Positions 14,959 through 54,054 of a DNA stretch of 64,000 bases are shown one piece after another. The DNA is from Nocardioides sp. Root682. GTDB taxonomy: Bacteria; Actinomycetota; Actinomycetes; Propionibacteriales; Nocardioidaceae. Position 1 is the stretch's first letter, and each line of letters starts with the position of its first letter. The notes beneath the pieces are model-generated. The model saw nothing but the letters and a program-made list of their open reading frames with translations, was not told the DNA's origin and made no database searches. The stretch lies in assembly GCF_001427795.1 (NCBI RefSeq), contig NZ_LMHJ01000001.1, positions 2,071,664-2,135,663 of the forward strand. Direction: 5' to 3'. The position numbers and the translations under genes were made by a program.

Positions 14959-16820
14959 ACACACCCGTCCCCCTCCACCCCGTGCTGGACGACGTCACCC
15001 GCCGGCTGACCGAGCGCAGTGCAGCGACCCGGGCCACCTACCTGGCACGGATCCGTGCGGCAGGACACCGCGGCCCGGCCCGCGGCCGGCTCGCCTGCGC
15101 CAACCTCGCGCACGGCTTCGCTGCTGCCGAGGGTGCCGAGAAGACCGAGCTCGCGCGCGGCCAGAAGCCGAACCTCGCGATCATCACCAGCTACAACGAC
15201 ATGCTGTCCGCCCACCAGCCGTACGGCGACTACCCGCCCGTGCTCAAGAAGGCCGTGATCCGCGCCGGCGGGCTCGCCCAGGTCGCTGGCGGCGTGCCCG
15301 CGATGTGCGACGGCGTCACGCAGGGCCGTGACGGCATGCAGCTCTCCCTCTACAGCCGCGACCTGATCGCCATGTCGACGGCGATCGCGCTCTCGCACGA
15401 CATGTTCGACGGCGCGCTGCTGCTGGGCGTGTGCGACAAGATCGTCCCCGGCCTGCTGATCGGCGCCCTGTCGTTCGGCCACCTCCCGGCCGTGTGGGTG
15501 CCCGCCGGGCCGATGGAGTCCGGTCTCCCGAACAAGGAGAAGGCCGCCGTACGACAGCTCTTCGCCGAGGGCAAGGTCGGGCGTGAGGAGCTGCTCGAGG
15601 CCGAGGCGGCGTCGTACCACTCGCGCGGGACGTGCACCTTCTACGGCACCGCCAACTCCAACCAGTTGCTGATGGAGGTGCTCGGCCTGCACCTTCCGGG
15701 GTCGTCCTTCGTCAATCCCGGAACGCCGCTGCGCGAGGCCCTGACCCGCGAGGCCGCTGCCCGAGCGGTCCGCCGGACCGTGCAGTACGACGCCGCGCCG
15801 GCCCTGGGCGAGATGGTCGACGAGAAGGCCATCCTCAACGCGTGCGTGGCACTCCTCGCGAGCGGCGGATCCACCAACCACACGCTGCACCTCGTCGCCA
15901 TCGCCCGCGCCGCCGGCATCCTGCTGACCTGGGACGACCTGGCCGAGCTGTCGGCCGTGGTGCCGTCGCTGGCGCGGATCTACCCCAACGGCGCAGCGGA
16001 CGTGAACCACTTCCACGCAGCCGGGGGCATCGGCTTCCTGGTCCGCACCCTGCTCGACGCGGGCCTGCTGCACGAGGACGTCGAGACCATCGTCGGCCAC
16101 GGCCTGCGCCGCTACACCGAGGAGCCGGTGCTGGTCGACGGCGAGCTGACCTGGCGGCCGGGTCCCGCCGAGAGCCTGGACCTCGACGTGCTGCGCCCGG
16201 CAACGGACCCGTTCGCCGCGGACGGCGGGGTGAAGGTGGTCAGGGGACCGTTGGGCACGGGCGTTGTGAAGACGTCGGCCGTCGCGCTCGAGCACCGGTT
16301 CGTCAGCGCACCGGCGCGCGTCTTCGACGACCAGCACGACTTCCTGCTCGCCTTCGCCGACGGCGACCTCGACGGGCACGACCTCGTCGCGGTGATCCGC
16401 TACCAGGGACCGGCGGCCAACGGCATGCCCGAGCTGCACAAGCTGACCCCCGCGCTCGGCGTGCTCCAGGACCGCGGCCAGAAGGTCGCGATCGTCACCG
16501 ACGGGCGGATGTCCGGCGCGTCGGGCAAGGTCCCGGCCGCCATCCACGTGACGCCGGAGGCCGCCCTCGGCGGTCCCCTGTCCCGCGTCCAGGACGGCGA
16601 CCTGATCACCCTGGACTCCGATGCCGGGACGCTGACCATCGCGGCGGACCTCACCCACCGCACACCGACCGGCAACCCGCCGACCGGCGACGAGTGGGCC
16701 GGCACCGGCCGCGAGCTGTTCGCGGCCTTCCGCAGCACCGTCGGCCCGGCCGACGAGGGCGCCTCGGTCTTCCCCGCACCCAACGCCACCGACCTGGAGG
16801 TCCGCCTTGTCCACTCCTGA
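14955..16820 (+). CDS. edd: 6-phosphogluconate dehydratase
   Basis: Converts 6-phosphogluconate to 2-keto-3-deoxy-6-phosphogluconate, the diagnostic Entner-Doudoroff step. The 621 residues match the IlvD/Edd family at full length. Iron-sulfur ligand regions are recognisable in [12 protein letters not shown] and GVCDKIVPG, and [10 protein letters not shown] is a conserved family segment; [19 protein letters not shown] near the C-terminus is characteristic of Edd. It overlaps zwf by 4 bp and eda by 14 bp, giving a tight three-gene operon. Confidence 0.95.
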
Positions 16821-17430
16821 GAGCGTCCTCGACGTCGTACCGGTGATGCCGGTCGTCGTCATCGACGACCTGGCGTCCGCCGTCCCCCTGGCCAAGGCGC
16901 TCGTGGCGGGCGGCCTGCCCGCCATCGAGCTGACCCTGCGCACCCCGGTGGCGCTCGACGCGCTCCGCGCCATCGCCGCCGAGGTGCCCGACATCCTGCT
17001 CGGCGCCGGCACCATCACGACGCCGGCCCAGGCGGCCGCGGCGGTCGAGGCCGGCGCGCGCTTCCTGGTGTCCCCCGGCCTGACGCCGGACCTGCTCGCC
17101 GCGATGGTGGACACCGGTGTGCCCTTCCTGCCCGGCACGTCGACGGTGTCCGAGGTGATGCGGGTGCTCGAGGCGGGGCTCACCGAGATGAAGTTCTTCC
17201 CCGCCGAGGCGGCGGGCGGGACGCCGTACCTCAAGTCCGTGGCGGGCCCGCTCCCCCAGGCCCGCTTCTGCCCGACCGGCGGCATCAGCCCGGCGTCCGC
17301 GCCGACGTACCTCGCGCTGCCGAACGTCGGCTGTGTCGGCGGCAGCTGGATCACGCCGGCCGACGCCGTCGCGGCGGGCGACTGGGAGCGGATCAGCAAA
17401 CTCGCCGCGGAGGCGGCGGCGCTCCGCTGA
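16807..17430 (+). CDS. eda: KDPG aldolase (2-keto-3-deoxy-6-phosphogluconate aldolase)
   Basis: Cleaves KDPG to pyruvate and glyceraldehyde-3-phosphate, completing the Entner-Doudoroff pathway. The class I aldolase residues are present: Glu41 in AIELTLRT and the Schiff-base Lys129 in EMKFFPAEA. The 207-residue length is typical. The start is TTG at 16807, supported by a strong GGAGGTC ribosome site at 16796-16802 inside the end of edd. The gene converges on the lipoprotein gene downstream with only 15 bp between stops. Confidence 0.95.
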
Positions 17431-17445
17431 CTCCTGGAGAAACGC

Positions 17446-18435
17446 CTATTCGGCGGCTGCGCAGAGCTCGACGTCGCCGTCCGGAAGCAGGGCCTCACGC
17501 TCACTCGGGTCCATCTGGGTCAAGGCGGTGATGTCCATGCCTCCCAGCGCCGTCGCATCGATGAGGCGCGACGCTGGTGGGGCCTCGATCTCGACGGGGT
17601 CACTGGCCCCGTACTCGATCGTCACGACCCCCGACATGGCGGTCTTCAGCTCGCCTCGGGACGCACCCGCCGGTACGCGAGCGCCCGCCTCGACCAGTGC
17701 GTCGATGGCGGCACCGAGCTCGTACTCGGCCTTGACGGGGCGCCCGTCCCGGAGCGTGATGACGACCGGCACCGGGACGTCCTTCTCGACATAGAGCAGC
17801 CGTGCCGTCTTCGGCCAGATAGCAGCAACCAGGTTGACTGCGTCCGCGTCGATGACGATCACGTCGGGGTCCTCCCGGGTGAATCCACGCGCGTATCCGT
17901 CCGCCACCAGCAGGGCAGGTGGGTACCACCCGATGTCGCCTGGGCCCGCCATCTGGCCGAAATCGAACCAACATCCTTTCAGCTCAGGGACGGCGACCTG
18001 TCCGTACGAGCGGCCGGCGATGTAGCGGGTTCGCGTCTGGAAGCCTTCGACTGCCTCGCTGAGATGCGCGAGCGCCTCGGGGACGTCGTTGATCTCGGTT
18101 GCTGTTCTCGACCGCTCGACTTCGGGGTCGCCTGCTCCCGAGATGGACACCGTTCCCATCACCATCCTCACCCTTCCCTGGTAGGTCACGGGGCTGGAGA
18201 TGAGGGCGGTCAGCGCCTTCGTGTGGAGAGCATCGGCGTCCTGCTTCGTGGATCCATCGACGTCAGGAATTGTCCAGGCGGCCACCTCCGGAGGCACCGA
18301 AGGTTCGCCCGCCGAGGGAGATCTGTCGCGGTCGCTGCGATCAGCATCACCGCCGCATGCGCCCGCCATGAGAGACACGGCCAGCAGGATCGAGGCGCCA
18401 CGTCCGCGGATCACGCCGGCGACACTAGCGCGCAT
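17446..18435 (-). CDS. Putative lipoprotein of unknown function
   Basis: A 329-residue protein with a basic start, a hydrophobic stretch and a lipobox ending LMAGAC (Cys about 27), so it should be lipid-anchored on the outer face of the membrane. A charged, serine/proline-rich linker follows. The mature part is beta-rich, with alternating polar/hydrophobic strands and helices such as EALAHLSEAVEGFQT, and recalls in outline the LppX/LprG lipoprotein fold; I cannot confirm this without a search. Base composition looks slightly less GC-biased than its neighbours, so it may be a later arrival. It stands alone between eda and an isomerase-like gene. Confidence 0.75.
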   Translation of the reverse strand: MRASVAGVIRGRGASILLAVSLMAGACGGDADRSDRDRSPSAGEPSVPPEVAAWTIPDVDGSTKQDADALHTKALTALISSPVTYQGRVRMVMGTVSISGAGDPEVERSRTATEINDVPEALAHLSEAVEGFQTRTRYIAGRSYGQVAVPELKGCWFDFGQMAGPGDIGWYPPALLVADGYARGFTREDPDVIVIDADAVNLVAAIWPKTARLLYVEKDVPVPVVITLRDGRPVKAEYELGAAIDALVEAGARVPAGASRGELKTAMSGVVTIEYGASDPVEIEAPPASRLIDATALGGMDITALTQMDPSEREALLPDGDVELCAAAE

Positions 18436-41570: not shown

Positions 41571-42938
41571 ATGGGACACGTGGATCTACACCTCGCAGAG
41601 CTGAGCCGCACCATCGATCCGGCGGTGCTCGGGCAGCGCATCCGTACGGCGCGCGTCGCTGCAGCCATGACCCAGGCCCAGGTGGCTGCCGGCGAGGTCA
41701 CCGCGGCCTACCTGTCGCGGATCGAGGACGGCCAGCGCCGCCCCGAGGCAAGTCTCCTCGAACGGATGGCGACCCGGATGGGCGTCAGCCTGGACGACCT
41801 GCTCCTCGGCGTCTCGCGGGACCAGGTGCAGGAGCTCCAGCTGGCCGTGGACCACGCCGAGCTGTCACTCGTGTCCGGCGACGGCGCCGGCGCGCTCAGG
41901 GCGATCGACGCCGTCCTCGCCGACCCGGCGATCCAGGGAACACCGCTGGTGCTGCGAGCAGCCCAGCAGGTCCGTGCCGGAGCCCTCGAGGCGACCGGAG
42001 ACCTCGACAGCGCGATCGTCCTGCTCGAGAAACTCACGGCGAGCCCCACACCCGACGCGATCTGGCTCAAGGGACTGATCGCGCTCAGCCGCTGCTACCG
42101 CGAGAGCGGCGACTACCCCCGTGCCATCAATGTCGGCGAGCAGGCCCAGGCCATCGTCGACGAGCTGGGCATCGGCGGACTCACCGAAGCCATCCAGCTC
42201 ACCGTCACCACGGCGGGCGCCTACCACTCGCAGGGCGACCTCGGACAGGCGATGCGGACCTGCATGCGCGCCCTCGAAGCAGCCGAGAGGTACGACTCGC
42301 CCGTGGGCAAGGCGTCGGCGTACTGGAACGCCAGCATCGTGGAGGCGACCCGCGGTTCGGCCAGTGCGGCGATCGACCTGGCCCGCAAGGCCCTTGCCCT
42401 CTTCGAGCTGAGCGACGACAGCCGCAACCTGTCCCGGCTCCGCGCCACGGTCGCGAACATGCTCCTCCTCCAGGATCCACCGGACCCGGAGGCCGCCCTC
42501 GAGATGATGTCGACCATCGAGCGCGAGATGAGCTGGTCGAACGCATCGGCGTGGGACATCTCCTGGCTCCACCTCTGCCGCGGGAAGGCGCACTTCCTGC
42601 TGGGAGACCACGACGCAGCGCTGGCGAGCGTCGCCAGGGTCGAGGAGACGAAGCCGACCGGTGCGCCGACCCTGGAGGCACAGTGCCTCGTCCTCGAAGG
42701 GCGGATCGCATTCGCCGGCGGCGATCGCGACCGCGCACGGAGCCTGTTCCGGGCCGGCGTGCACGCCCTGACCGCGGCCGGAGCCGACCGGGGAGCCGCA
42801 CAGCTCTGGTTCGAGCTGGCCGACCTGCTCGCCGAGGTGGGCGACCACGAAGGAGCCGTGGAAGCCTTCCGCAGCGCCGGCGCCTCGACCGGACTTCGAC
42901 TCCCGAGCCGCACGGCCGCCGTACCCGCGCAGCGCTGA
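41571..42938 (+). CDS. XRE-family helix-turn-helix regulator with C-terminal TPR domain
   Basis: A 455-residue protein. An N-terminal Cro/XRE helix-turn-helix (about 17-75: LGQRIRTARVAAAMTQAQVA, AAYLSRIEDGQRRPEASLLE) is followed by a long all-helical array of TPR-like pairs from about 85 to 440 (AYHSQGDLGQAMRTCMRALE, RIAFAGGDRDRARSLFRAGV). This is the layout of RRNPP-type peptide-sensing regulators, in which the TPR groove binds a small peptide; other XRE-TPR proteins have different or unknown ligands. It faces a 23-codon gene across a strong terminator, a suggestive arrangement. Start at ATG 41571, with GTG three codons later also possible. Confidence 0.85.
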   Translation: MGHVDLHLAELSRTIDPAVLGQRIRTARVAAAMTQAQVAAGEVTAAYLSRIEDGQRRPEASLLERMATRMGVSLDDLLLGVSRDQVQELQLAVDHAELSLVSGDGAGALRAIDAVLADPAIQGTPLVLRAAQQVRAGALEATGDLDSAIVLLEKLTASPTPDAIWLKGLIALSRCYRESGDYPRAINVGEQAQAIVDELGIGGLTEAIQLTVTTAGAYHSQGDLGQAMRTCMRALEAAERYDSPVGKASAYWNASIVEATRGSASAAIDLARKALALFELSDDSRNLSRLRATVANMLLLQDPPDPEAALEMMSTIEREMSWSNASAWDISWLHLCRGKAHFLLGDHDAALASVARVEETKPTGAPTLEAQCLVLEGRIAFAGGDRDRARSLFRAGVHALTAAGADRGAAQLWFELADLLAEVGDHEGAVEAFRSAGASTGLRLPSRTAAVPAQR

Positions 42939-44065: not shown

Positions 44066-44590
44066 CTAGGCGCGCCGCAGAGCGAGGTTGTTGCACGCCT
44101 CGCAGGTCTCCTGCGGGACCAGTCCGGCCCGCATGAGCCAGCCGAAGATGGTGCAGCCCAGGCAGAACGCGAGGAACGCCTCGAGCCCGGCGGCCACGAT
44201 GATCAGTCCCAGCAGGACCTCGGCAAGGACGAACTGGTCGAACGCGACGGCGGCAGCGGCAAACCCGGTGACCACGGCGCCGATGACCTGGGCGAAGCGC
44301 TTCGGAGGCCCAGCGACGGATTTCGCCGGTCCCAGACGAGGAGCGATCACGCTGCTGGCGAGGCGTCCGAGCGGGCTGAGCGTCGGGCCCGTCAGCGCAC
44401 GGGCGACGAAGCCCAGCGCCAGCGGGAGGCTCAGCCAGAGCCAGTCCGTGCTGACCAGGCGGCCCAGCAGCAGGGCGGACGTGGCGATGGCGACGACGCC
44501 ACCCGCGACCACCCGGGCGGCCTTCTCGTTGACCGGGTGCGGGAAGCTGAAGGTACGGCGGAGCAACGACTCCGGAACACCTGTTGTCAT
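44066..44590 (-). CDS. DUF4395 membrane protein with two CxxC motifs
   Basis: A 174-residue protein with three or four membrane helices of the DUF4395 type. Near the C-terminus are FCLGCTIFG (Cys143, Cys146) and ETCEAC (Cys163, Cys166), which could bind a metal or exchange thiols. DUF4395 proteins often sit beside thioredoxin- or rhodanese-like genes. Here it is the last gene of the CopC/CopD operon, overlapping the stop of the upstream gene by 4 bp (ATGA). Confidence 0.82.
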   Translation of the reverse strand: MTTGVPESLLRRTFSFPHPVNEKAARVVAGGVVAIATSALLLGRLVSTDWLWLSLPLALGFVARALTGPTLSPLGRLASSVIAPRLGPAKSVAGPPKRFAQVIGAVVTGFAAAAVAFDQFVLAEVLLGLIIVAAGLEAFLAFCLGCTIFGWLMRAGLVPQETCEACNNLALRRA

Positions 44591-47448
44591 GGTCGGGGAC
44601 TTCCTTCCGATGAGAGGCCGAGACCTGGCACGAGCCCGAGCGGTGCGGTGGAGGTGACGGTCCAGTTCCCCTCGGGGAAGTAGGAGTCGTCCTGCCGCTC
44701 ACCACCGGAGGAACCGGGGATCAGCGTCGGCGCCAGGAACTGCGGCTGGAGGGGCACGACCGCGGTCGATCCCAGGCCCGGAGAACGCCGGCTCCACGGC
44801 GCGAGCAGCGCCGAGCTGAACACGTCCGGCGAGCTCAGGTACGCGACGATGTCCTTCGAGGAGGTCCCCGTCTCCAACGCCTCCGCGATCGCTCGGCCGG
44901 CCGCGTACCCCCGCAACCCGTCGAGCGAGGCGAGCTCGCCGCGGAAGAGCTGCGGAACGGCCATCCGGTAGAGCACGCCGTCGGTCGACGAGGTCGAGAC
45001 CTCGCTCACCCCCTGCACCGCGCCGAGGTGACCGAGGGCACCCGAGGCACGGACCACCGTCTCGGAGAGCACCCGCTCCGACAACAGGATCGGCGAGGTC
45101 AGGACCTTGTCGCCCCTGGCCCGTCCCAGTCGCTCGATGGCGCCGACGTCGGCACCTCCGGCATTCGGCAGGTCCACGACCAGTGCCGTGGTCCGTCGAG
45201 CGTCGATGACGCGCGTCAGGGCACCGTCGTCGAGCGCAGCCAGGGCACCCGGCTCGAGCTGGACGACCTCGGGAATCGGTCGCGACGAGGGGTCAGCGAA
45301 GCCCTCCGGCGCTGCCTCCGGCGTGATTCCGAGCTTCAGGCCAGCGAGCAGGCGTCGGCCCTGGAGGTCATCGGCGACGAGAGCGCGTACGACCGGCTCG
45401 TCGGCAACGCCGGCCGGCTGGATCCGGCCCCGGATCAGCTGTCCGAGGGCGATGCCCTGCGCGAACGGGTCGGCCACCAGGCGGAACACGCCCGGCGTCT
45501 CGGTGGGGTCGACGGCGGGATCGCCCACGACCACCGGGATGTCGGCATCGGCCATCGCCTCGACAGCCTCGGAGCCACCCCCGCCGCAGGTGCCGGCGGA
45601 AGCGATGCCGCCCGCACGCAGCGCCCGGGCCACGGCCTTCCTCGCGCCGTCGGCGGTGCCGCCGCTGTCGAGCGTCAGCAGTGCCACCTTCCGTCCGCCG
45701 TCGAGCCCGCCGTCAGCGTTGACCCTGGCCAGCGCCATCTGGACCCCCAAAACGTGAGCACGGCAGCGTTCAGCCGCGGGCCCACTGAGGTCGGCCACAG
45801 CGATCACGTTGACGGGTGTTGCGCCCGGCGCCTCGGGGACACCGACCTCGAGAGCCACGGCCTGGGCGGGCTCGCCGCCGTTCACCGTGACCTCGGCACG
45901 CCACTGACCGTTCGACGAGACGTCCACCGGAGCCGACCAGGTACGCCCTCCGTTCTGCTGCAGCTCGAGGGTGCGCGGTTGCTCGCCAGGTCCGGACAGC
46001 AGCACTGACACCTTGCCCGCCGTCGGGGTCTCCGGCGGCAGGGCCACGGTGAGGACGTTGTCGCCCACCCGGGCAGGTGCCAGACCGACCGCCGCCGTAC
46101 CGGTGTCCAGCACTGCCGTGGCAGCCGCCGGACCGGCGAACAGCGTCCCGACCTGCGCCGGGAGCGGACGCTCGCGGCCCTGGACCAAGGCGCCCAACGT
46201 GACGGCGAGGGCGAGCACGACGACGCCGACCACGAGCTCGAGGCCCACGGCACGACCGGGTCCGGCCTCACGCTCGCGTTGGGAGCGACGCCAGGCGATC
46301 AGGCCGATGACCGCGATCACGACGACCAGTGCGGCCTTCGCGATCACGACGCGTCCGTAGCCCGACCACGTCAGGAAGTACCAGTGCGCGACCTCCCGGA
46401 TCGCCGCAGCCACGCCGGTGAGGACCACCACGACGAGCGCGCCGATCGCGATCCCCGCATAGCGCCGTAGCGCCGTGCGCACCTCGACGCCGCCGACACG
46501 TGCGGCGAGCGCGACCGCGCCGAGTCCGCCGAGCCAGAGGCCGGCGGCGAGCACGTGGACGACGACAGCCAGCAGATAGGGCACGGACGGCTCGGTCAGC
46601 ACGTGGCCGGAGAACGCGTAGCTTGCGAGCACGCCTCCCGCGGCGACGAGGCCGGCCCAGGCCCGCACCCGGCGCTGGCGTCGTACGACGAGCAGGGCGA
46701 CGGTGGCCACAGCCACGAACGCGAGCCGGGCGAGATCGGCCCGCCCGGTGGCTGAGTCGGTCAGCAGCCCGACGTCGAGCTCTCCCGTGGCGCCGGCCGT
46801 CGCCGAGGTGAGCGCACCGGCGAACGCGGCCAACACAGTCACCAGCCAGGCGATCGGCGCGAAGCGCAGGATGCGTGATTCGGCTGCGGGCGTGATCTCG
46901 TCCGCCCGGCGCAGCCGGTGCAGGAGCAGCAGGCCCGCGAACAGGACGGAGGCGACCAGGATGCCCGCCCAGCGGCCCGCCCAGCGGATCGCGCTGTCCC
47001 CGGCGGCGCTGCTCTCGGGCCGTTGGCCGGCACCGGTGAGCGACGCCGCCCCGGGCGGGTCGTCGCCGTTGGCGGCCGCGACGCCGAACCGGAAGGATCC
47101 GGACACGACGTGGCCGTCGTCGCCGAGGGCGGACCAGCGGACCGTGTAGATGGCACTGGCCAACGTGGTGCGTGGCACGACGGAGAGGATCTGCCCGTTG
47201 GCCTTCTCGGTGACGGGTCCGGTCGCAACGACCTTGCCGTCGGGGCCGGTGACCTTGAGCGTCGAGCCGCGGGCGACCGCAGGCTCGCTGAGCGCGATGG
47301 AGATCGCCTTGGGTGCCTCGGGGGCGACGGAGCCCGCCTCCGGCGTGGACTGGATTGCGTTGGGGTGCGCCGCCGCGGGCGCCGCGCCGCTGCCCAGGAG
47401 GGCAGACAGCGCGACGACCGCGACGACGACGAACTGCCGAAGGATCAA
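44587..47448 (-). CDS. CopC-CopD fusion with C-terminal periplasmic-binding-protein domain
   Basis: A 953-residue protein. After a signal sequence, the mature end begins AAHPN with a likely copper-ligand His28, and the CopC domain closes with DGHVVSGSFRFG (His113). A CopD membrane part of about eight helices follows (about 155-430). Next comes a YtkA-like beta domain (about 450-545), then a type I periplasmic-binding/leucine-binding-like domain (about 546-900; starts VNVIAVADLSGP; cysteines in TCGGGGS). CopC-CopD fusions occur in actinobacteria; the added amino-acid-receptor-like domain I do not recognise from any family. TTG 47448 overlaps the preceding stop (TTGA). It also overlaps the DUF4395 gene, so all three are one operon. 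Confidence 0.85.
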   Translation of the reverse strand: MILRQFVVVAVVALSALLGSGAAPAAAHPNAIQSTPEAGSVAPEAPKAISIALSEPAVARGSTLKVTGPDGKVVATGPVTEKANGQILSVVPRTTLASAIYTVRWSALGDDGHVVSGSFRFGVAAANGDDPPGAASLTGAGQRPESSAAGDSAIRWAGRWAGILVASVLFAGLLLLHRLRRADEITPAAESRILRFAPIAWLVTVLAAFAGALTSATAGATGELDVGLLTDSATGRADLARLAFVAVATVALLVVRRQRRVRAWAGLVAAGGVLASYAFSGHVLTEPSVPYLLAVVVHVLAAGLWLGGLGAVALAARVGGVEVRTALRRYAGIAIGALVVVVLTGVAAAIREVAHWYFLTWSGYGRVVIAKAALVVVIAVIGLIAWRRSQREREAGPGRAVGLELVVGVVVLALAVTLGALVQGRERPLPAQVGTLFAGPAAATAVLDTGTAAVGLAPARVGDNVLTVALPPETPTAGKVSVLLSGPGEQPRTLELQQNGGRTWSAPVDVSSNGQWRAEVTVNGGEPAQAVALEVGVPEAPGATPVNVIAVADLSGPAAERCRAHVLGVQMALARVNADGGLDGGRKVALLTLDSGGTADGARKAVARALRAGGIASAGTCGGGGSEAVEAMADADIPVVVGDPAVDPTETPGVFRLVADPFAQGIALGQLIRGRIQPAGVADEPVVRALVADDLQGRRLLAGLKLGITPEAAPEGFADPSSRPIPEVVQLEPGALAALDDGALTRVIDARRTTALVVDLPNAGGADVGAIERLGRARGDKVLTSPILLSERVLSETVVRASGALGHLGAVQGVSEVSTSSTDGVLYRMAVPQLFRGELASLDGLRGYAAGRAIAEALETGTSSKDIVAYLSSPDVFSSALLAPWSRRSPGLGSTAVVPLQPQFLAPTLIPGSSGGERQDDSYFPEGNWTVTSTAPLGLVPGLGLSSEGSPRP

Positions 47449-49649
47449 CGGTAGTCCCGGTAGGAGAGGTCCTTGCCCGACGCGTTGGGGGTGGAGATCC
47501 CCGGCGGCGTCACCCACAGCTCGGAGTGCGGCTTGTAGAAGCCCGCATCCGGGTTGCCTGGCCAGTTGCGACGGTTGAAGTTGACGCCGAGACCGCCGGT
47601 CTTCTCGTCACGGAACGAGTCGTCGTAGCTGAGCTTGCCCGACGGCGTGATGTTCACCGCGTACAGGCGGTGGTCACCGTCGACACCCGTGCGGGAGACG
47701 AAGTAGTCCGTGAACTGGAGCCGCCACGGCGTACCCCACTGGTCGACGGTGTGGTTGTCGAGGGCACCCCAGTGCGGGCCACCCGTCGTCACGTCGGCGA
47801 CAGGCAGGGCGGAGATGAATCGCGGGCAGTCCGCGACCGTCTGGCCCTGGGCGAGCTTGTTCCACAGCTGGATGCCCGTGATGTCGAGGGTGCCGTTGTG
47901 GATGCCTCGCGACAGGTCGCAGTCGACCTTTCCGTCGGCAGCGCTCTTGATGAGCGGCGAGATGTCGATGTCGTAGACGATCTTCGCCGAGCCCTGGTCG
48001 AAGTAGTTGTCCGACCCGGGGTTGCGGCCCTGGACGGCTCGGAAGAGGATCCGGTTGCTGGGCGACACCTGGTGCCAGGCGCCGCCGGCGCAGCCACCGG
48101 GCTCGTCGTACTTTCGACCCTCGTCCGTCTGCACGATCGACAGGCCGTCGTTCCACACCTGGACGATCTGGTCGGAGAAGTCGCCCTTCGCCTTGGTCAG
48201 GTCAGGGACGAAGAACAGGCCACCGCCGCACATCGAGCCGAAGAACGCGCCCTTGGACGACAGGCCGTTCTTGTACCGGTCGGCGTTCGGCCACGTCTTG
48301 GCCGCCTCCATGATCCCGTACTGCTCGTGTGCCCGCTGCGCGGGCTCGGTCGGGCCGTTCGGGACGTGGGCGACACCGATCAGCTTCGGCTTTCCTGCAT
48401 GGGCTCCCGTGTTGTCCCACGTCCGGACCGTCGGGCGGAAGGCGTACTTGTCGATCGTCTTGACCGGGTCGAGGACGATCTCGCGGGGCTCGGCGTAGTC
48501 CGAGGTGATGCCGACGCCGAGGTCGTTGCGGAACTGGATGCCGTGCGGGTTCGCGCAGGTCCCGAGCGGGCGTGCCTCACGCAGCGAGCAGGGCTCCTTG
48601 ATGCCGTTCGGGTTGGCGCCGAGCACGCCGCCGGCCGGGGACTCGGACTCGACCACGACACCCTTGGTCGGGTGCGGCTTGAAGGTCACCACCTCGCCGG
48701 GCGAGCCACCGAAGTTGGCGAGCGGACCACCCATGAGGGTCAGGTAGAAGCGCCCACCGGGGCCGTTCTCGTACGCGTCGGCGATCGAGCCGCCCGGCGT
48801 CGAGGTCACCGGGATCTCGTTGAGCAGCTTGAGGTTGGGGATGTCCGACGCGCCGAGCACGTGCGTCGTGCCGGTGAAGAGACCTCCGGCGAGGATCGGG
48901 TCACCGTCATTCCACTCGTACTGCATGTGGTGCGACTCGTTCTCGAGGCCCCAGGGCAGCGGGAGCTGCACGAAGTTCACCACGCGGCCGTAGTCCGGGT
49001 TGTCCGTGCCGTCGAGGTTCTTGGCCCGACCGTCGATGACCTGGAATCCGTCGAGACCCGGCAGGAACTGCGGGTTCAGCAGGTCGAGCAGGCCCTGCGG
49101 GTTGATCGTCGCGTTCTGGACGAACTTGCTGATGACGTCGGCGTTGATGTCCGCAGCGTTCTGCTTCGCCGACCACACCACGGAGTACTCGGGCTTCGCC
49201 AGCGGGTTGGGCTGCGGGCCCTTCCCTGCCTCGTACTTCGCCTGGGCAGCCTTCCACTCGGCGGTGGCCTTGTCGCGACGCGCGATCGCGCCGGGAACCG
49301 TGTTGTTCTTCACCTTGCCGAGGCTGGTCGCGTTGCTGAGCGTGTTGACGAGCCACTCCGCGCTGATCGGCAGGTCACCGAGCAGGCCCAGCGCGCCGTC
49401 CCCGTCGAGACCGGCGCCGTCCAGTACGTCGAGGCCCGGCAACGGCAGACCCCCTTCGCCGAGCGCGTCGAGACCCGGCAACGCCAGGCCTCCGCCACTC
49501 AGGGAATCGAGACCCGGTACCGGGACGCCGCCCGGATCTGTGGTGTCGTCAGCTGCTGCGGTGCTGGTGGTCGCGGTCAGGAGACCGAGACTGAGCAGGC
49601 CAACGGCGATACCGCGTGTGACGCGGTTCTTCCTGTGCATGCTGTGCAT
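47445..49649 (-). CDS. Large secreted protein of unknown family, operon-leading
   Basis: A 734-residue exported protein with a signal (about 1-33, ending STAAADD). A low-complexity region of PGLD-type repeats follows (about 43-93). The large remaining region is rich in Trp, Gly, Asp and His. Motifs that stand out are ESHHMQYEWNDGDP, FYLTLMGGPLANFGG, GSMCGGGLFFVPDL and CAGGAWHQVSP. The overall strand pattern suggests a beta-propeller and recalls, weakly, copper-dependent SBP56/methanethiol-oxidase proteins, but I cannot assign a family. ATG 49649 has a GAGGAAGG ribosome site. It leads the operon with CopC/CopD and DUF4395, so a secreted copper protein is a reasonable guess. Confidence 0.75.
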   Translation of the reverse strand: MHSMHRKNRVTRGIAVGLLSLGLLTATTSTAAADDTTDPGGVPVPGLDSLSGGGLALPGLDALGEGGLPLPGLDVLDGAGLDGDGALGLLGDLPISAEWLVNTLSNATSLGKVKNNTVPGAIARRDKATAEWKAAQAKYEAGKGPQPNPLAKPEYSVVWSAKQNAADINADVISKFVQNATINPQGLLDLLNPQFLPGLDGFQVIDGRAKNLDGTDNPDYGRVVNFVQLPLPWGLENESHHMQYEWNDGDPILAGGLFTGTTHVLGASDIPNLKLLNEIPVTSTPGGSIADAYENGPGGRFYLTLMGGPLANFGGSPGEVVTFKPHPTKGVVVESESPAGGVLGANPNGIKEPCSLREARPLGTCANPHGIQFRNDLGVGITSDYAEPREIVLDPVKTIDKYAFRPTVRTWDNTGAHAGKPKLIGVAHVPNGPTEPAQRAHEQYGIMEAAKTWPNADRYKNGLSSKGAFFGSMCGGGLFFVPDLTKAKGDFSDQIVQVWNDGLSIVQTDEGRKYDEPGGCAGGAWHQVSPSNRILFRAVQGRNPGSDNYFDQGSAKIVYDIDISPLIKSAADGKVDCDLSRGIHNGTLDITGIQLWNKLAQGQTVADCPRFISALPVADVTTGGPHWGALDNHTVDQWGTPWRLQFTDYFVSRTGVDGDHRLYAVNITPSGKLSYDDSFRDEKTGGLGVNFNRRNWPGNPDAGFYKPHSELWVTPPGISTPNASGKDLSYRDYR

Positions 49650-49826
49650 GTGCCTTCCTCTGTACGTGCGGTGACGTGACCGATCGGCCGACGTCGAGAA
49701 AATGGACAGGTACGACGCCGTGACGCACCGCTCCCAGCTCCGCACCCGAGCAGGCCAGGTCGTGCTCCCAGTTCGACCCGACGCGGTCCACGCCGTACAT
49801 GTCCAGCAGTTCTCGACTGCCTCCCA

Positions 49827-49849
49827 TCGATGGCCGCAGCGGCCATCGA
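49827..49849. other. Perfect 23-bp palindrome
   Basis: Arms TCGATGGCCGC (49827-49837) and GCGGCCATCGA (49839-49849) flank a single A. It lies between the lipoprotein stop and the next operon's promoter on the minus strand. It could terminate the lipoprotein transcript or be an operator; the near-absent loop favours a protein site slightly. Confidence 0.6.
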
Positions 49850-49864
49850 CTCCCTACAGACGAT

Positions 49865-49906
49865 GGTGACATCTAACCATACTATTTTAGGTGACTTAGA
49901 GGTGAT
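49865..49906. promoter_or_regulatory. AT-rich promoter patch with GGTGA direct repeats
   Basis: The most AT-rich stretch of the region carries GGTGAC at 49865-49870 and 49890-49895 and GGTGAT at 49901-49906. On the minus strand, TAAAAT and TAGTAT offer -10-like elements, so this is the likely promoter of the 47445-49649 operon, perhaps with activator or metal-repressor sites. The rest of the 291-bp gap (49650-49940) holds no gene I can support. Confidence 0.5.
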
Positions 49907-49940
49907 TGGGTTTTGGTGGCACCCCCACCTGCCACGCCAT

Positions 49941-50642
49941 TCACTTCGACGCGACGAACGTCCCCTCGAGGTGCCAGTTGCCGCTGAACCTGTCGAAGGG
50001 TCCGCCCTCGATGGTGCTCGACCACGAGAGCTCGAAGCGCCCGGATTCCTCGTCATAGGTCCCCACGACCGGGCTCGTGAGGCCCTCGGTCGTCCCGTCG
50101 GGCTTGGGCGATCCCTGGTTGAAGTAGAGGTTGTTCCAGGCTGCCGTCCACGCCGTCAGCTGTCCCGACAGCTTCCCGTCGTCGTTGCGGACCTCAGGCG
50201 CTGGAAGCTTCTCCCCCGTCCCCGGGTCGACCGACTGCGTCGAGATGGCGAACTTGATCGCGGTGAAGGTGCCCGGTCGGGTGATCTGCCCTGCGAGCGC
50301 GTCGCCTCGCGCATTGAACGCCGGATCGGGGCCTGGCTGGAAGGTGCCGGTCACCAGGCCACGGTCGGTTCCCGCGATCGCGACCGAGTAGGACTGGTCG
50401 GGGCACTTCGAGTCGGGATTGAGGAAGTACCCGCCCTTCTCGACGGTGCCTCCGGGCTGGATCATGCGGAAGTACGAGCCGGTCGCCCCCTTCGCGTCAC
50501 AGTGGCCGGGGTCGAGCTGGAACGTGCCGACCAGTGCCTCTCCTGCGGGCTTCTCCTCCTCGGACGATCCGCACCCCGTGAGGATCGTGAGGATGAGTGC
50601 GCCGACGGCAGCGATCCGCAACGACGGTCCAGTGATTTTCAT
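49941..50642 (-). CDS. Lipoprotein with two conserved cysteines, paralogue of 51627-52760
   Basis: A 233-residue lipoprotein (lipobox ILTGC, Cys24). The mature domain begins LVGTFQLDPGHC, has a second cysteine in SKCPDQSY, and ends with the striking FNQGSPKPDGT and EGGPFDRFSGNWHLEGTF. The exported protein on the other strand (51627-52760) has the same domain with the same two cysteines and the same ending, so these are homologues. No known family is recognised. ATG 50642 overlaps the stop of the upstream membrane-protein gene by 4 bp. Confidence 0.8.
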   Translation of the reverse strand: MKITGPSLRIAAVGALILTILTGCGSSEEEKPAGEALVGTFQLDPGHCDAKGATGSYFRMIQPGGTVEKGGYFLNPDSKCPDQSYSVAIAGTDRGLVTGTFQPGPDPAFNARGDALAGQITRPGTFTAIKFAISTQSVDPGTGEKLPAPEVRNDDGKLSGQLTAWTAAWNNLYFNQGSPKPDGTTEGLTSPVVGTYDEESGRFELSWSSTIEGGPFDRFSGNWHLEGTFVASK

Positions 50643-51529
50643 GGTCGTGCCTTTCGAGGGATGAACGAGATCAGGACGAGGACGGCACCTGGAGCGACGA
50701 AGAACCAGGGGAAGAGCCGGAAGCTCGGCAGCGAGGCGACCGCCTGGTAGTTGTCGACGCTGTCGCTCATCGCGCCGATCATCGGGGTCATGTCGTTGAG
50801 GATGCCGATCCACTCGGCGTCCAGGCGCTCGGTTGCCGGGTGCGGCACGCCGGCGCGGACGAGCTCGGGAGCGATGTCCAGCCGGATCGCACCCTGGCCC
50901 GACGCCATCGTGGCGAAGTAGCCCTGGATCCGGGCGACGTTCTCCGTGGTCTCGATCGTCTCGAAGGCGCCCATCATCTGCGCCCCCTGGGGCGCCTTGT
51001 GGAACATCCCGACAGCGAAGGGCAGCACGACCAGGGCGACGCCGATCGCGGCAGCAGGCCCCCGCAGCCACCACCCGTCACGCCCCGTCACCGCGGCGTA
51101 CCCCGCCAGGAGGAAGATGATCACCCCCGGTACGGCGAAGAACCACGGGAACAGGCGGAAGTCCGGCAAGGACGCCACGGCGTCGTAGCCCTCGCGATTC
51201 GCCGCGACCTGGTCCATCAGGGACGTCATCGTGGTGTGGATCTCGGGCCAGTCCTTGCTGAACGTCGCGTACGACGGACTGCCGATGTCGGGTTGCTCCT
51301 CCACCAGCGGGTCGAGCTCCTGCACCGAGGCGTCGATCCCGGCGAGGTGCCCCTGGAAGCCCGCCAGCCGCTCCTTCGTCATCAACGGAGCGAAGTCCTG
51401 GATCATCTCGGCGCCCAGGGGCGCGCGATGGAACATCCCGAAGACGACCGGGGCGAGAGCCAGTCCCAGTCCCACCAGTGCCAGCGCCACCGCGACCGGC
51501 CGTGCCGAACCTCCACGCGTCGTCACCAC
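50639..51529 (-). CDS. Internally duplicated four-helix membrane protein
   Basis: About 296 residues, built from two similar halves. Each has a membrane helix, then a GMFHRAPLGAEM / GMFHKAPQGAQM segment, about 85 extracytoplasmic residues with conserved Trp and Met, and a helix entered by ASLPDFRLFPWFF / ASLPSFRLFPWFF. No known family is evident. The start is GTG 51529 with GGGGA upstream; GTG 51538 and 51526 are in frame. It leads the lipoprotein gene at 49941-50642 and diverges from the three-gene plus-strand group. Confidence 0.78.
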   Translation of the reverse strand: MVTTRGGSARPVAVALALVGLGLALAPVVFGMFHRAPLGAEMIQDFAPLMTKERLAGFQGHLAGIDASVQELDPLVEEQPDIGSPSYATFSKDWPEIHTTMTSLMDQVAANREGYDAVASLPDFRLFPWFFAVPGVIIFLLAGYAAVTGRDGWWLRGPAAAIGVALVVLPFAVGMFHKAPQGAQMMGAFETIETTENVARIQGYFATMASGQGAIRLDIAPELVRAGVPHPATERLDAEWIGILNDMTPMIGAMSDSVDNYQAVASLPSFRLFPWFFVAPGAVLVLISFIPRKARP

Positions 51530-51626
51530 ATTCCCCACCCACCCGCTTCTTTCTTATTGTCCACTAGATCACTATACTTTATCGGGTTCCCTCCCCGGGC
51601 TGCTCCGCCCTGACAGAAACGACGCC
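51530..51626. promoter_or_regulatory. Divergent promoter region of the envelope module
   Basis: A conspicuously AT-rich stretch (CTAGATCACTATACTTTATC, about 51562-51581) sits between the divergent groups. TATACT on the plus strand and TATAGT on the minus strand overlap and could serve as -10 elements, so the two directions may be co-regulated. Confidence 0.5.
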
Positions 51627-52760
51627 ATGACGACCCTCCCCCTGCGCCGCGCGCACTCACGTCACCGGTGGCTGGCACTGCTGCTCGCCCTGATCGCCGG
51701 CACGCTCGCATCTCTTTCGACCGCGGCGGCGCCGCCCTCGGAGGCCGACACCGCATCTCGGCTGGTGGGCGTCTTCCGTCTCTCGGCGGGCAGCTGCAAG
51801 GGCGGGAAGATCGCGGGCACCTACCTGCGGATGATCCTGCCCAGCGGCACCGTCAACGGTCCGTACATGTCGAACGGCGACTCACCCTGCAGCGACCAGT
51901 CGTACACACCGCTCGGTCCGGGCGTGGACGGCGGCCTCAGCACCGTCGCCCACCAGGCCGCACCCCAGCCTGCGTTCGACTCGGCGGGCAACGCACGAGC
52001 AAACCGAATCACCGCGCCAGCGCAGTACTACGGCACCGCCTTCACCACCGCGACCGCCGCCAAGGAGCCCCAGACCGGGCGGTCGGTGCCGGTCCCGACG
52101 GTGACGCTGCGCGGGGACAAGCTCACGGCCGACCTCCGGGCGTTCACCGTGAGCTGGAACAAGCAGTACTTCAACCAGGGTGCTCCGAAGCCCGACGGCT
52201 CGACACCCGGCAACACGAAGGTCGCGACGGGCACCTACGACCGCGCCACGGGCCGCTTCACCCTCGAGTGGGCCAGCCAGGTGCAGGGCGGCCCGTTCGA
52301 CAGGTTCACCGGCAAGTGGCACCTCGAGGGCGTCTTCGTCCCGGCCGTCGCGAACGGGGCCGGCTCGCCCGGCTCCACGCAACAGGGCTCGGCGTCCGCG
52401 GGCTCCGGCTCCGCGGCCAACCCTGGCCAGGCGCAGCCCGGTGCGGCGGTGCCCGGTGCGGCGGTGCCCGGTACGGCGGTGCCCGGTACGGCGGTGCCCG
52501 GTCAGGCACCGGTGGCCGGCGCACCGGTCGCAGGTGCGCCCGCCGCTGGTGCGCCCGTCGCCGGTGCGCCCGTCGCAGGTGCGCCCGTTCCGGTCGCCGG
52601 TGCAACTGCCGGCCAGACCATCACGCAACGACACACGGAGTGGCGCGTGTCCGGCCCGCTGACCGCCTTCGCCATCGGCCTCGCCGTCGTCGCGCTCGGC
52701 CTGGTCGTCGGCACCCGGGTCCTGGAGCGTCGCGGGGCGCGGAAGGCCGCCGCGTCATGA
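51627..52760 (+). CDS. Exported two-cysteine protein with repeat stalk and C-terminal membrane anchor
   Basis: A 377-residue protein: export signal (about 1-40), a conserved domain (about 45-235) homologous to the lipoprotein at 49941-50642 (starts LVGVFRLSAGSC, second Cys in SPCSDQSY, ending GGPFDRFTGKWHLEG). A low-complexity stalk of AVPG and VAGAP repeats (about 270-325) follows, then one membrane helix (LTAFAIGLAVVALGLVVGT) and a basic tail. This is a surface-display layout without an LPXTG motif. ATG 51627 lies in a region with no strong ribosome site. It overlaps the next gene by 4 bp. Confidence 0.8.
   Translation: MTTLPLRRAHSRHRWLALLLALIAGTLASLSTAAAPPSEADTASRLVGVFRLSAGSCKGGKIAGTYLRMILPSGTVNGPYMSNGDSPCSDQSYTPLGPGVDGGLSTVAHQAAPQPAFDSAGNARANRITAPAQYYGTAFTTATAAKEPQTGRSVPVPTVTLRGDKLTADLRAFTVSWNKQYFNQGAPKPDGSTPGNTKVATGTYDRATGRFTLEWASQVQGGPFDRFTGKWHLEGVFVPAVANGAGSPGSTQQGSASAGSGSAANPGQAQPGAAVPGAAVPGTAVPGTAVPGQAPVAGAPVAGAPAAGAPVAGAPVAGAPVPVAGATAGQTITQRHTEWRVSGPLTAFAIGLAVVALGLVVGTRVLERRGARKAAAS
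52438..52597. repeat. 15-bp tandem repeats encoding the AVPG/VAGAP stalk
   Basis: Four near-identical 15-bp units of GGTGCGGCGGTGCCC type (from about 52438) are followed by several GTCGCCGGTGCGCCC-type units to about 52597, coding for pentapeptide repeats. Unit number is likely to vary between strains. Confidence 0.8.
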
Positions 52761-53590
52761 ACCTGCCCCTCATCCGCAAGGTCGCGCTGGGCGTCCTGCT
52801 CCTCGACGTCCTCGTCATCGGCGCGGCTGCCGTCCAGGTCGACGACGTCAGCTCCACCACGAGCGCCCCACTCGCGGGCGTCCCGGTGCCCCTGGTCCAC
52901 GGGGCGCCCACCGCGGTGCCGGTCGACGCGTCGGCCGTCGAGGTGTTCCCCGCCGTGCCCGGGACCCCGCTGCCCGCCGCCGTACCCATCGGTGACGGTG
53001 GCGTCTCCGCCGGCACGGACAAGCCGTCGTCCGACGGCAGAGGACCAACCCCGCCACCCGAAGGCCCCGAGACGCCCGGTGAGGAAGGCGTGCCCGGGGG
53101 GCGGGGCATCCCGCCCTGCCCGGTCAAGCTCGACGACGACCCGCAGAGCGGCGGCCTCCAGTCGCTGGTGCCCTTCGCGCCGGCCTTCGGCCCGTTCTCC
53201 GCCGAGGCCTTCGCCCTCGCGTCTGCCTACCAGCCGGAGCTCCAGCTCCTCGGACCGATCCTCGCCCAGTACCCCGGCATCGAGCCCGCGGTCGCGCCGA
53301 TCATCGACCCGCTGGTCACCAGCCTGGGCACGCTCCTCACCCGTGGGCTGGACGTCATCGCGCCCCTCTACGGTCCCTACCGGACCCAGTTCCTCGAGGC
53401 CGAGACCAAGCTGGCGGCAGCCCTGGCGCCGTACTCCCAGGCGCTGGCCCACAACGAGCTGGGCGGATGCATCGTCGAGCTGCAGAGCGCACTCCTCGCC
53501 GCCAGCAAGCGCGGAGCGCCGAGCGTGTCCAGCCCGACGGGGCTCGACCTGTCCGCCCTCGACCTGTCCGCCCTCGGCGGGTCCCGGTGA
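52757..53590 (+). CDS. Exported protein of unknown function, envelope module
   Basis: A 277-residue protein with an N-terminal membrane or signal helix (VALGVLLLDVLVIGAAAV). A proline-rich linker (about 35-115) leads to an all-helical C-terminal region with two cysteines (IPPCPVKL and GGCIVEL) and a regular pattern of LLGPILAQYPGIEPAVAPI-type helices. The end has two LDLSAL repeats. No family recognised. It shares 4 bp with each neighbour (ATGA and GTGA), so it is translationally coupled inside the three-gene group. Confidence 0.75.
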   Translation: MNLPLIRKVALGVLLLDVLVIGAAAVQVDDVSSTTSAPLAGVPVPLVHGAPTAVPVDASAVEVFPAVPGTPLPAAVPIGDGGVSAGTDKPSSDGRGPTPPPEGPETPGEEGVPGGRGIPPCPVKLDDDPQSGGLQSLVPFAPAFGPFSAEAFALASAYQPELQLLGPILAQYPGIEPAVAPIIDPLVTSLGTLLTRGLDVIAPLYGPYRTQFLEAETKLAAALAPYSQALAHNELGGCIVELQSALLAASKRGAPSVSSPTGLDLSALDLSALGGSR

Positions 53591-54054
53591 GCCCCCGCGG
53601 TCCCCTGGCAGGGATCGCCCTGGCGCTGGTCAGCGTGGTCCTGGCGGGGTGCACCTTCTCCTCCGGCAGCTCCACCGAGATCACCGAGGTCGCCGCGCCG
53701 GGCCAGGAGGCGTCCGGACCGCAGGGTGCGGGCGGTTCGAGCGACCAGGCACCCGACCGCAAGGCCGCCCAACCCACGCCTTCGGCCGCCCACGTCTCGG
53801 CGCTGTGCGACAGCCTCACGGCCGTCTACCTCACCAACATCTCCGACGCGGAGAACGCAGCCAGCATCGTCAACGACTGGGTGGAGGTCACCGCAGCCGC
53901 GCCAGCGTCACTCAAGGACGACCTCAACACCGTCGGCGCGTACCTGGTGGCAGCCGCGAAGGGCGACTACGCGCGGATCAAGGGGGCTTCCGACCTGGTC
54001 GGCAAAGCACTCGACCAGATCGACAAGTACGTCACCAAGGTCTGCCGCGCCTAG
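53587..54054 (+). CDS. Small lipoprotein, envelope module
   Basis: A 155-residue lipoprotein (lipobox VLAGC, Cys22) with a Ser/Gly/Ala-rich linker and a helical C-terminal domain of about 85 residues with two cysteines (SALCDSL and TKVCRA) near its ends, which could form a disulfide. GTG 53587 overlaps the previous stop (GTGA). It ends 12 bp from the convergent menB stop. Function unknown. Confidence 0.75.
   Translation: MSPRGPLAGIALALVSVVLAGCTFSSGSSTEITEVAAPGQEASGPQGAGGSSDQAPDRKAAQPTPSAAHVSALCDSLTAVYLTNISDAENAASIVNDWVEVTAAAPASLKDDLNTVGAYLVAAAKGDYARIKGASDLVGKALDQIDKYVTKVCRA

What the first reader, a model, noticed from the sequence alone, without database searches (positions are those of the whole stretch)
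44066..54054. An uncharacterised envelope module of eight exported or membrane proteins, possibly copper-linked
Two divergent groups (five genes leftward, three rightward), with stop/start overlaps of 4 bp at five junctions, encode only exported, lipid-anchored or membrane proteins. One fuses CopC and CopD to a binding-protein domain; the gene at 47445 is a large secreted protein with His/Met/Cys-rich motifs; DUF4395 brings two CxxC motifs. Homologous proteins occur on both strands, which ties the groups into one module. I know of no described system with this composition. The copper link rests only on the CopC/CopD parts.
Basis: partly seen in the sequence, partly recalled or inferred. Interest (0 to 1): 0.85.

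Follow-up and report, generated by a model that had tools for sequence, protein, structure and literature searches.

The report
Secreted copper-linked sulfur-processing gene module
Eight neighbouring genes in an actinobacterium probably encode surface machinery, built round a distant relative of the copper enzyme methanethiol oxidase, that handles small sulfur compounds; this gives an unnamed set of proteins a testable job.

Summary
The eight genes and five 4-bp overlaps are there. The large secreted protein C (47445-49649) is a divergent relative of the SBP56/methanethiol-oxidase family: best fold match 2ECE, profile-profile E 1.7e-5, weak Pfam SBP56 hits in 8 of 9 aligned members (not in the window copy). 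In 79 genome loci C is followed directly by a B-type protein in 75; CopC is an optional part of it. Neighbours elsewhere are sulfur genes: YeeE-type transporter (32 of 79), MBL-rhodanese, cys and sulfite-reductase genes, TauE. The D/F and E families, unmatched in Pfam, sit beside TusA, DsrE and Hdr-like genes in another class. DUF4395 (A) often sits with thioredoxin and rhodanese. Not shown: activity, substrate, copper. The HxxH of known enzymes is missing in C, and the host lacks YeeE and a close MBL-rhodanese, so the mechanism is inferred. New variant of a known kind.

The parts
44066..44590 (-). A: DUF4395 membrane protein with two CxxC; probable redox/sulfur relay partner
   Evidence: Pfam DUF4395 E 2.4e-31. 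In 11 of 13 read loci of other genomes (of 24 fetched) DUF4395 lies by a rhodanese-type sulfurtransferase, in 10 of 13 by a thioredoxin (by reading; Pfam check on 3 loci)
44587..47448 (-). B: CopC-CopD-periplasmic-binding-domain fusion, membrane protein; probable copper supplier/partner of C
   Evidence: Pfam CopC 9.6e-17, Peripla_BP_6 6.8e-13, CopD 4.6e-11; a B-type gene directly downstream of C in 83 of 87 loci; CopC-bearing and other B-type proteins are homologous by profile, E 2.2e-27
47445..49649 (-). C: secreted seven-bladed propeller, divergent SBP56/methanethiol-oxidase relative; proposed catalytic protein
   Evidence: AF2 model pTM 0.86, best PDB match 2ECE, hhalign with SBP56 E 1.7e-5, invariant His240, 241, 369, 626, 660, 708 in 34 of 34
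49941..50642 (-). D: lipoprotein with one D/F beta-barrel domain
   Evidence: lipobox by reading; AF2 model of the domain pLDDT 86, all-beta; D/F in 3 of 396 phylum genomes
50639..51538 (-). E: membrane protein of two similar units, four membrane segments
   Evidence: a half-length relative beside TusA and DsrE (L117) and a weak relative beside a flavoprotein gene (L116), Pfam
51539..51626 (.). divergent spacer between E and F; CTATACTTTA and the part next to F are the same in the G006 (Root240) genome
   Evidence: alignment of the two spacers
51627..52760 (+). F: exported protein with D/F domain, Pro/Ala/Gly repeats and C-terminal membrane segment
   Evidence: 46% identical to D; segments
52757..53590 (+). 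G: exported or anchored protein, no known domain
   Evidence: no Pfam match; homologue beside F in L028 and L021
53587..54054 (+). H: small lipoprotein
   Evidence: lipobox by reading; only sub-threshold DUF3558; homologue in L021 (Root240) only among 79 loci

Best explanation
The region encodes one extracytoplasmic sulfur module. C is a secreted seven-bladed propeller derived from the SBP56/methanethiol-oxidase family and oxidises a small thiol (methanethiol or a like compound) outside the membrane, with copper as the likely cofactor. B, whose gene overlaps that of C, is its fixed partner: the binding-protein domain docks on or senses C or its substrate, and the CopC-CopD parts supply copper, in the role that SCO1/SenC is thought to play beside known mtoX genes. 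A (DUF4395, two CxxC) relays electrons or sulfane sulfur across the membrane. E, D and F-G-H form a surface assembly of a two-unit membrane protein and beta-barrel proteins that holds or passes a sulfur intermediate. Shown here: the homologies, the fixed C-B pair, the sulfur neighbourhoods, the recurrence of the module. Inferred: activity, substrate, copper, the roles of A, B and D-H.
For: Fold: 2ECE is top by Foldseek (E 1.6e-15; next, the copper enzyme N2O reductase, 2.4e-8) and by Z 27.6 over 385 residues at 2.8 A. Sequence: hhalign prob 78.7, E 1.7e-5 over 230 columns; Pfam SBP56 in 8 of 9 members of A1, best 2.1e-5. Invariant H240-H241 and E448 align with the HH pair and a Glu of SBP56; SELENBP1 needs HH and Glu252 (that this is the same Glu is by recalled sequence). 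B-type gene directly after C in 83 of 87 loci, homology of B-type forms E 2.2e-27. Sulfur neighbours of C: YeeE-like in 36 of 87 loci, query locus L016 included, 27 of the others starting from 60 bp before to 150 bp after the B-type stop (Pfam Sulf_transp for one); MBL-rhodanese in 7 of 87, L016 included; cysC, cysD, PAPS reductase and sulfite reductase on two Streptomyces plasmids; TauE (L026). D/F and E beside GcvH-like, DsrE, TusA, Hdr-like and molybdopterin/NrfD genes in G149. DUF4395 beside thioredoxin and rhodanese (the host's second copy, by reading). E, D/F, C and B together in L020 and L028.
Against: The window copy of C itself has no Pfam match at E 1 and 2ECE is only E 0.0075 by profile. 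Neither His of the HxxH motif needed in SELENBP1 is kept; that place holds D-A-Y/F-x. No SCO1 or MauG among the ten flanking proteins scanned. The host genome has no YeeE, no close MBL-rhodanese (best 39% over 113 aa), and one TusA with no Hdr-like gene seen in 17 kb round it, so where the sulfur goes is unknown. Other propellers score nearly as high by Z (27.0 over 297 residues). One of four Streptomyces plasmids read shows no sulfur gene near C and a half-length E locus shows none either (L114).
Confidence: 0.5

Rival explanations
1. Copper acquisition or resistance module: B imports or binds copper, C and the lipoproteins are extracellular copper binders.
For: CopC and CopD in B; CopD seen in 14 of 45 B-type proteins and a CopD-like region perhaps in more; a cupredoxin lipoprotein in the L028 locus.
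Against: CopC is in 8 of 45 B-type proteins and the forms of 392-465 aa (L011-L014, L016-L019) have no room for CopC-CopD, yet the pair with C stays; neighbours are sulfur genes; C is not His/Met/Cys-rich overall.
Confidence: 0.12
2. C is a non-catalytic propeller: a sulfur-compound sensor or carrier that hands a ligand to the binding-protein part of B.
For: HxxH of the active enzymes is lost; the B-type protein is the constant partner (83 of 87 loci) and its C-terminal part is shared between the forms, although Pfam names it Peripla_BP_6 in only 5 of 45.
Against: Six His, E448 and D291 are invariant in 34 of 34, more than a mere scaffold needs.
Confidence: 0.2
3. Two unrelated modules that lie side by side: C-B-A and E-D/F-G-H.
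For: C occurs without D/E/F in most loci (D in 4 and E in 3 of 79; part of the loci are cut by contig ends) and D/E/F without a C match in G149; the C/D gap is 291 bp.
Against: They adjoin in Root240, L020 and L028, and D/F also in L039, from three classes by recalled taxonomy; both sets have sulfur neighbours independently.
Confidence: 0.15
4. Envelope lipid or polyisoprenoid handling: D/F are YceI-like barrels and C-B sits by Mce-type genes in a Patulibacter-like genome.
For: The four best second-look matches of the D/F model are, by titles and recall, YceI-type proteins, Z 6.9-7.6; an MlaD gene next to C in L142.
Against: Z under 8 may be only a common arrangement, Foldseek best E 0.19; does not explain the sulfur neighbours.
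Confidence: 0.08

Closest known systems
Bacterial methanethiol oxidase MtoX (SBP56) operon mtoX-SCO1/senC-mauG (PMC5739008, passages read)
   Same: exported SBP56-type protein; copper-handling gene co-encoded; sulfur context; HH pair kept
   Different: C (734 aa) is about 300 residues longer than MtoX (435 aa), falls below Pfam's threshold, lacks HxxH; the copper partner is a CopC-CopD-binding-protein fusion; no SCO1/MauG in the ten flanking proteins scanned; A and D-H are extra
Human SELENBP1, copper-dependent thiol oxidase (PMC10362175, passages read)
   Same: fold family; counterparts of His73, His74 and, by recall of its sequence, Glu252
   Different: counterparts of His137/His140 absent; that of Asp189 unsure (invariant His369 lies near)
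sHdr-DsrE-LbpA cytoplasmic sulfur oxidation (PMC12423496, passages read)
   Same: D/F and E lie beside such genes in G149; the paper mentions dimethylsulfide and MtoX in Hyphomicrobium
   Different: no Hdr-like gene seen by the host's TusA; D/F and E are exported or membrane proteins
YcnJ/CopC-CopD copper importers (recalled; seen only in the listing)
   Same: CopC and CopD domains fused
   Different: B carries a periplasmic-binding domain and is tied to C

Membership tests
SBP56 / methanethiol oxidase (PF05694) | Pfam score over the curated cut-off | tested here: not met
   no match for the window C at E 1; 8 of 9 aligned members match, the three shown at 19-24 bits against a cut-off of 34, best E 2.1e-5
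SBP56 / methanethiol oxidase (PF05694) | fold of 2ECE, seven-bladed propeller | tested here: met
   top match in Foldseek and VIA-align 2; other propellers close in Z, so fold alone does not prove family
SBP56 / methanethiol oxidase (PF05694) | HH motif and Glu needed for activity in SELENBP1 | tested here: met
   H240, H241, E448 in 34 of 34, placed by the alignment with actinobacterial SBP56; equation with Glu252 by recall
SBP56 / methanethiol oxidase (PF05694) | HxxH copper-site motif | tested here: not met
   D-A-Y/F-x at that place in 34 of 34; register unsure by one residue
SBP56 / methanethiol oxidase (PF05694) | copper content and methanethiol oxidation | not testable with these tools
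   needs purified protein
mtoX operon | SCO1/SenC and MauG genes beside mtoX | tested here: inconclusive
   none in 10 flanking proteins scanned; other flanking ORFs and the rest of the genome not searched for them
CopC-CopD copper transporters | CopC and CopD domains | tested here: met
   B over both Pfam cut-offs, below the NCBIfam equivalog cut-offs
sHdr sulfur oxidation | Hdr-like genes, LbpA, TusA/DsrE in the host | tested here: inconclusive
   one TusA in the host, no Hdr-like gene seen by reading 17 kb round it; other places not searched

The most novel reading that the evidence does not exclude
An undescribed extracellular organosulfur-oxidation machine of Actinomycetota: an SBP56-derived enzyme with a rebuilt copper site (HxxH lost; invariant Asp291 and His369 near the places of His137 and Asp189), loaded by a CopC-CopD-binding-protein fusion, with beta-barrel lipoproteins and a two-unit membrane protein that hold or pass sulfane or elemental sulfur to the cell, moved between classes as a block.
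Probability: 0.3. Interest if true: 0.8.

Novelty: new variant of a known kind. Interest (0 to 1): 0.62.

Why it matters
Soil actinobacteria take part in the turnover of volatile sulfur compounds (recalled). A secreted SBP56-like family (167 relatives in one genome scan) with a fixed membrane partner, weak or silent in Pfam, would give a testable gene for that activity, a second way to feed copper to an SBP56-type enzyme, and two exported protein families without a Pfam model (D/F, E) tied to sulfur oxidation.

Tried and rejected
A reciprocal His/Asp swap in the metal site: left as a hint only, because the profile alignment is off by one residue from my reading by eye and has a gap at the Asp. 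YceI membership of D/F: best Z 7.6 and Foldseek E 0.19, not claimed. Literature on the module: searches (methanethiol oxidase, SBP56, copper; DUF4395; methanethiol oxidase, CopC, CopD; methanethiol, Actinobacteria, selenium-binding protein; sHdr, methanethiol, dimethylsulfide; selenium-binding protein, CopC, Nocardioides): no listed title, abstract start or opened passage described it; open-licence papers only. The metal site could not be measured on the model: I looked for its coordinates in the Python box and found none. In alignment A5 the stretch of L119 proved to be in a wrong frame, and L118 had failed before; both were left out, so A6 has four SBP56 sequences only. The distant C relative L143 has a long branch, its place in the tree is unsure.
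Full report
What is there. The window lies in a 5.2-Mb genome; among the rows of the C tree the nearest is Nocardioides sp. Root240 (97% in C). Eight genes fill 44066-54054 as two divergent groups with five 4-bp overlaps. Pfam names only A (DUF4395) and B (CopC, CopD, Peripla_BP_6); C, D, E, F, G and H have no match over a cut-off. D and F are homologues; E is a tandem of two similar units (by reading; half-length relatives).

What C is. Relatives of C are rare: 6 of 149 genomes of the family and 4 of 396 of the phylum, the host counted in each; a pattern scan of the species genomes found 167 relatives and kept 79 loci. By their titles all 79 are Actinomycetota and many Pseudonocardiaceae, so counts over them lean to that family. 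Eight of nine members of a first alignment hit Pfam SBP56 weakly, the window copy does not. The predicted structure (34 sequences, pTM 0.86) has 2ECE, the solved SBP56 protein, as best match in both structure searches. A profile of four actinobacterial SBP56 proteins aligns with E 1.7e-5; a profile of C against PDB sequences ranks 2ECE first but at E 0.0075 only, next an unrelated protein at 0.01. Taken together C is a divergent relative of SBP56, not a member by Pfam's threshold. Canonical SBP56 had no match in the host and matched in 6 of 118 class genomes.

Active site. PMC10362175 (passages) reports that His73, His74, His137, His140, Asp189 and Glu252 are needed in SELENBP1; PMC5739008 (passages) proposes His89, His90, His140 and His412 as copper ligands in Hyphomicrobium MTO. 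In C, H240-H241 and E448 match the HH pair and a Glu of SBP56; the HxxH place has D-A-Y/F-x; H369, H626, H660 and H708 are invariant in 34 of 34. H708 as counterpart of the C-terminal His is by eye, the alignment ends before it. So a metal site is likely, but its make-up must differ.

The fixed partner. In 83 of 87 loci (75 of 79 genome loci, 4 of 4 plasmid loci, 4 of 4 Nocardioidaceae loci) the next gene is a B-type protein, gap up to 238 bp. The four others: L036 has a CopD-like protein there that tblastn missed, L068 ends 71 bp after C, L026 has a TauE-like gene, L074 has none. Six plasmids matched and four were read. The window B and the other downstream proteins do not find each other by tblastn; a profile of 8 CopC-bearing B proteins and one of 37 others align with prob 99.8 and E 2.2e-27 over 561 columns, from the CopD-like membrane part to the C-terminus. 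Of 45 B-type proteins scanned (of 85 aligned), Pfam found CopC in 8, CopD in 14 and Peripla_BP_6 in 5; the forms in Streptomyces plasmids and the four Nocardioidaceae are only 392-465 aa long. In a tree of C, the 8 CopC-bearing rows fall in one supported group of 9 (99/99), the ninth being L026, whose 5.6-kb contig shows no B-type gene.

Sulfur neighbours. YeeE-like genes: 32 of 79 loci, 36 of 87 with the others and the query's own locus; 27 start between 60 bp before and 150 bp after the B-type stop; Pfam Sulf_transp was checked for one. MBL-rhodanese: 7 of 87, the query's locus included. Of four Streptomyces plasmids read, two carry cysC, cysD, PAPS reductase, sulfite reductase, sirohydrochlorin chelatase and an ABC transporter round C (named as sulfonate type in one), one has cysD only, one has no sulfur gene in view. 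DUF4395 in other genomes: of 24 loci fetched I read 13; 11 have a rhodanese-type sulfurtransferase, 10 a thioredoxin, checked by Pfam on three loci; the host's second DUF4395 is in such a locus (by reading).

D, E and F. In the same 396 genomes D/F is found in 3 and E at E<=1e-5 in 10, the host counted; the three with D/F are the three in which nearly all of E matches. In G149, which has no C match, two genes with three D/F domains, E and a sortase lie by GcvH-like, DsrE, NrfD/4Fe-4S and molybdopterin genes (L112), and a double D/F protein with another sortase lies near TusA, DsrE and Hdr-like genes (Hdr-like by order and Pfam Fer4, CCG, Pyr_redox_2; L141). Of seven genomes with partial E matches I read five: L117 (half-length E) has TusA and DsrE next to it and L116 (367 aa, a weak relative) a Pyr_redox_2 flavoprotein; L115 and L113 have DsrE-like or SQR-like genes some 6-8 kb away by reading; L114 shows none. 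The D/F domain is predicted as an all-beta barrel (pLDDT 86) without a clear structural match.

One module. E, F-like, D, C and B lie together in a Solirubrobacteraceae bin (L020), G, F, E, D, MBL-rhodanese, C and B in an Acidimicrobiaceae bin (L028), C, B and two D/F genes in a Frankiaceae bin (L039). The window's C groups with Root240, then L020, then Patulibacter, while the four other Nocardioidaceae copies fall in another group: transfer between classes is the simple reading, not tested further.

How it may work and limits. See Best explanation. PMC10936201 (abstract and outline) reports that Rhodobacteraceae MTOs make sulfane sulfur, which would suit the rhodanese, thioredoxin and Hdr-like neighbours. 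The host lacks YeeE and a close MBL-rhodanese, so the inner end of the path is unknown.

Noticed in passing
L112 and L141 (G149): Sortase genes (Pfam) directly beside D/F proteins in a sulfur-oxidation neighbourhood; D/F proteins there may be wall-anchored.
   Followed up: partly
L120 and L124: Canonical SBP56 genes of Actinomycetota: one after ABC transporter genes (L120), one before a Pyr_redox_2 flavoprotein (L124).
   Followed up: partly
L142:9608-18595: C and B of a Patulibacter-like genome follow Mce/MlaD-type genes (Pfam on one; the rest by reading).
   Followed up: partly
L143:7681-8127: A Cys/His-rich protein that looks by eye like a copper-storage four-helix bundle lies near a distant C relative; Pfam gives no match.
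   Followed up: partly
L028:20528-20959: Cupredoxin lipoprotein downstream of the module; also two more D/F copies at 16396-18410.
   Followed up: partly
window 49650-49940: The C/D spacer is well conserved with G006; the ORF of C could start as far up as 49745, so the start at 49649 is a choice.
   Followed up: no
window 41571-42938: HTH-TPR regulator near the module; no link shown.
   Followed up: no
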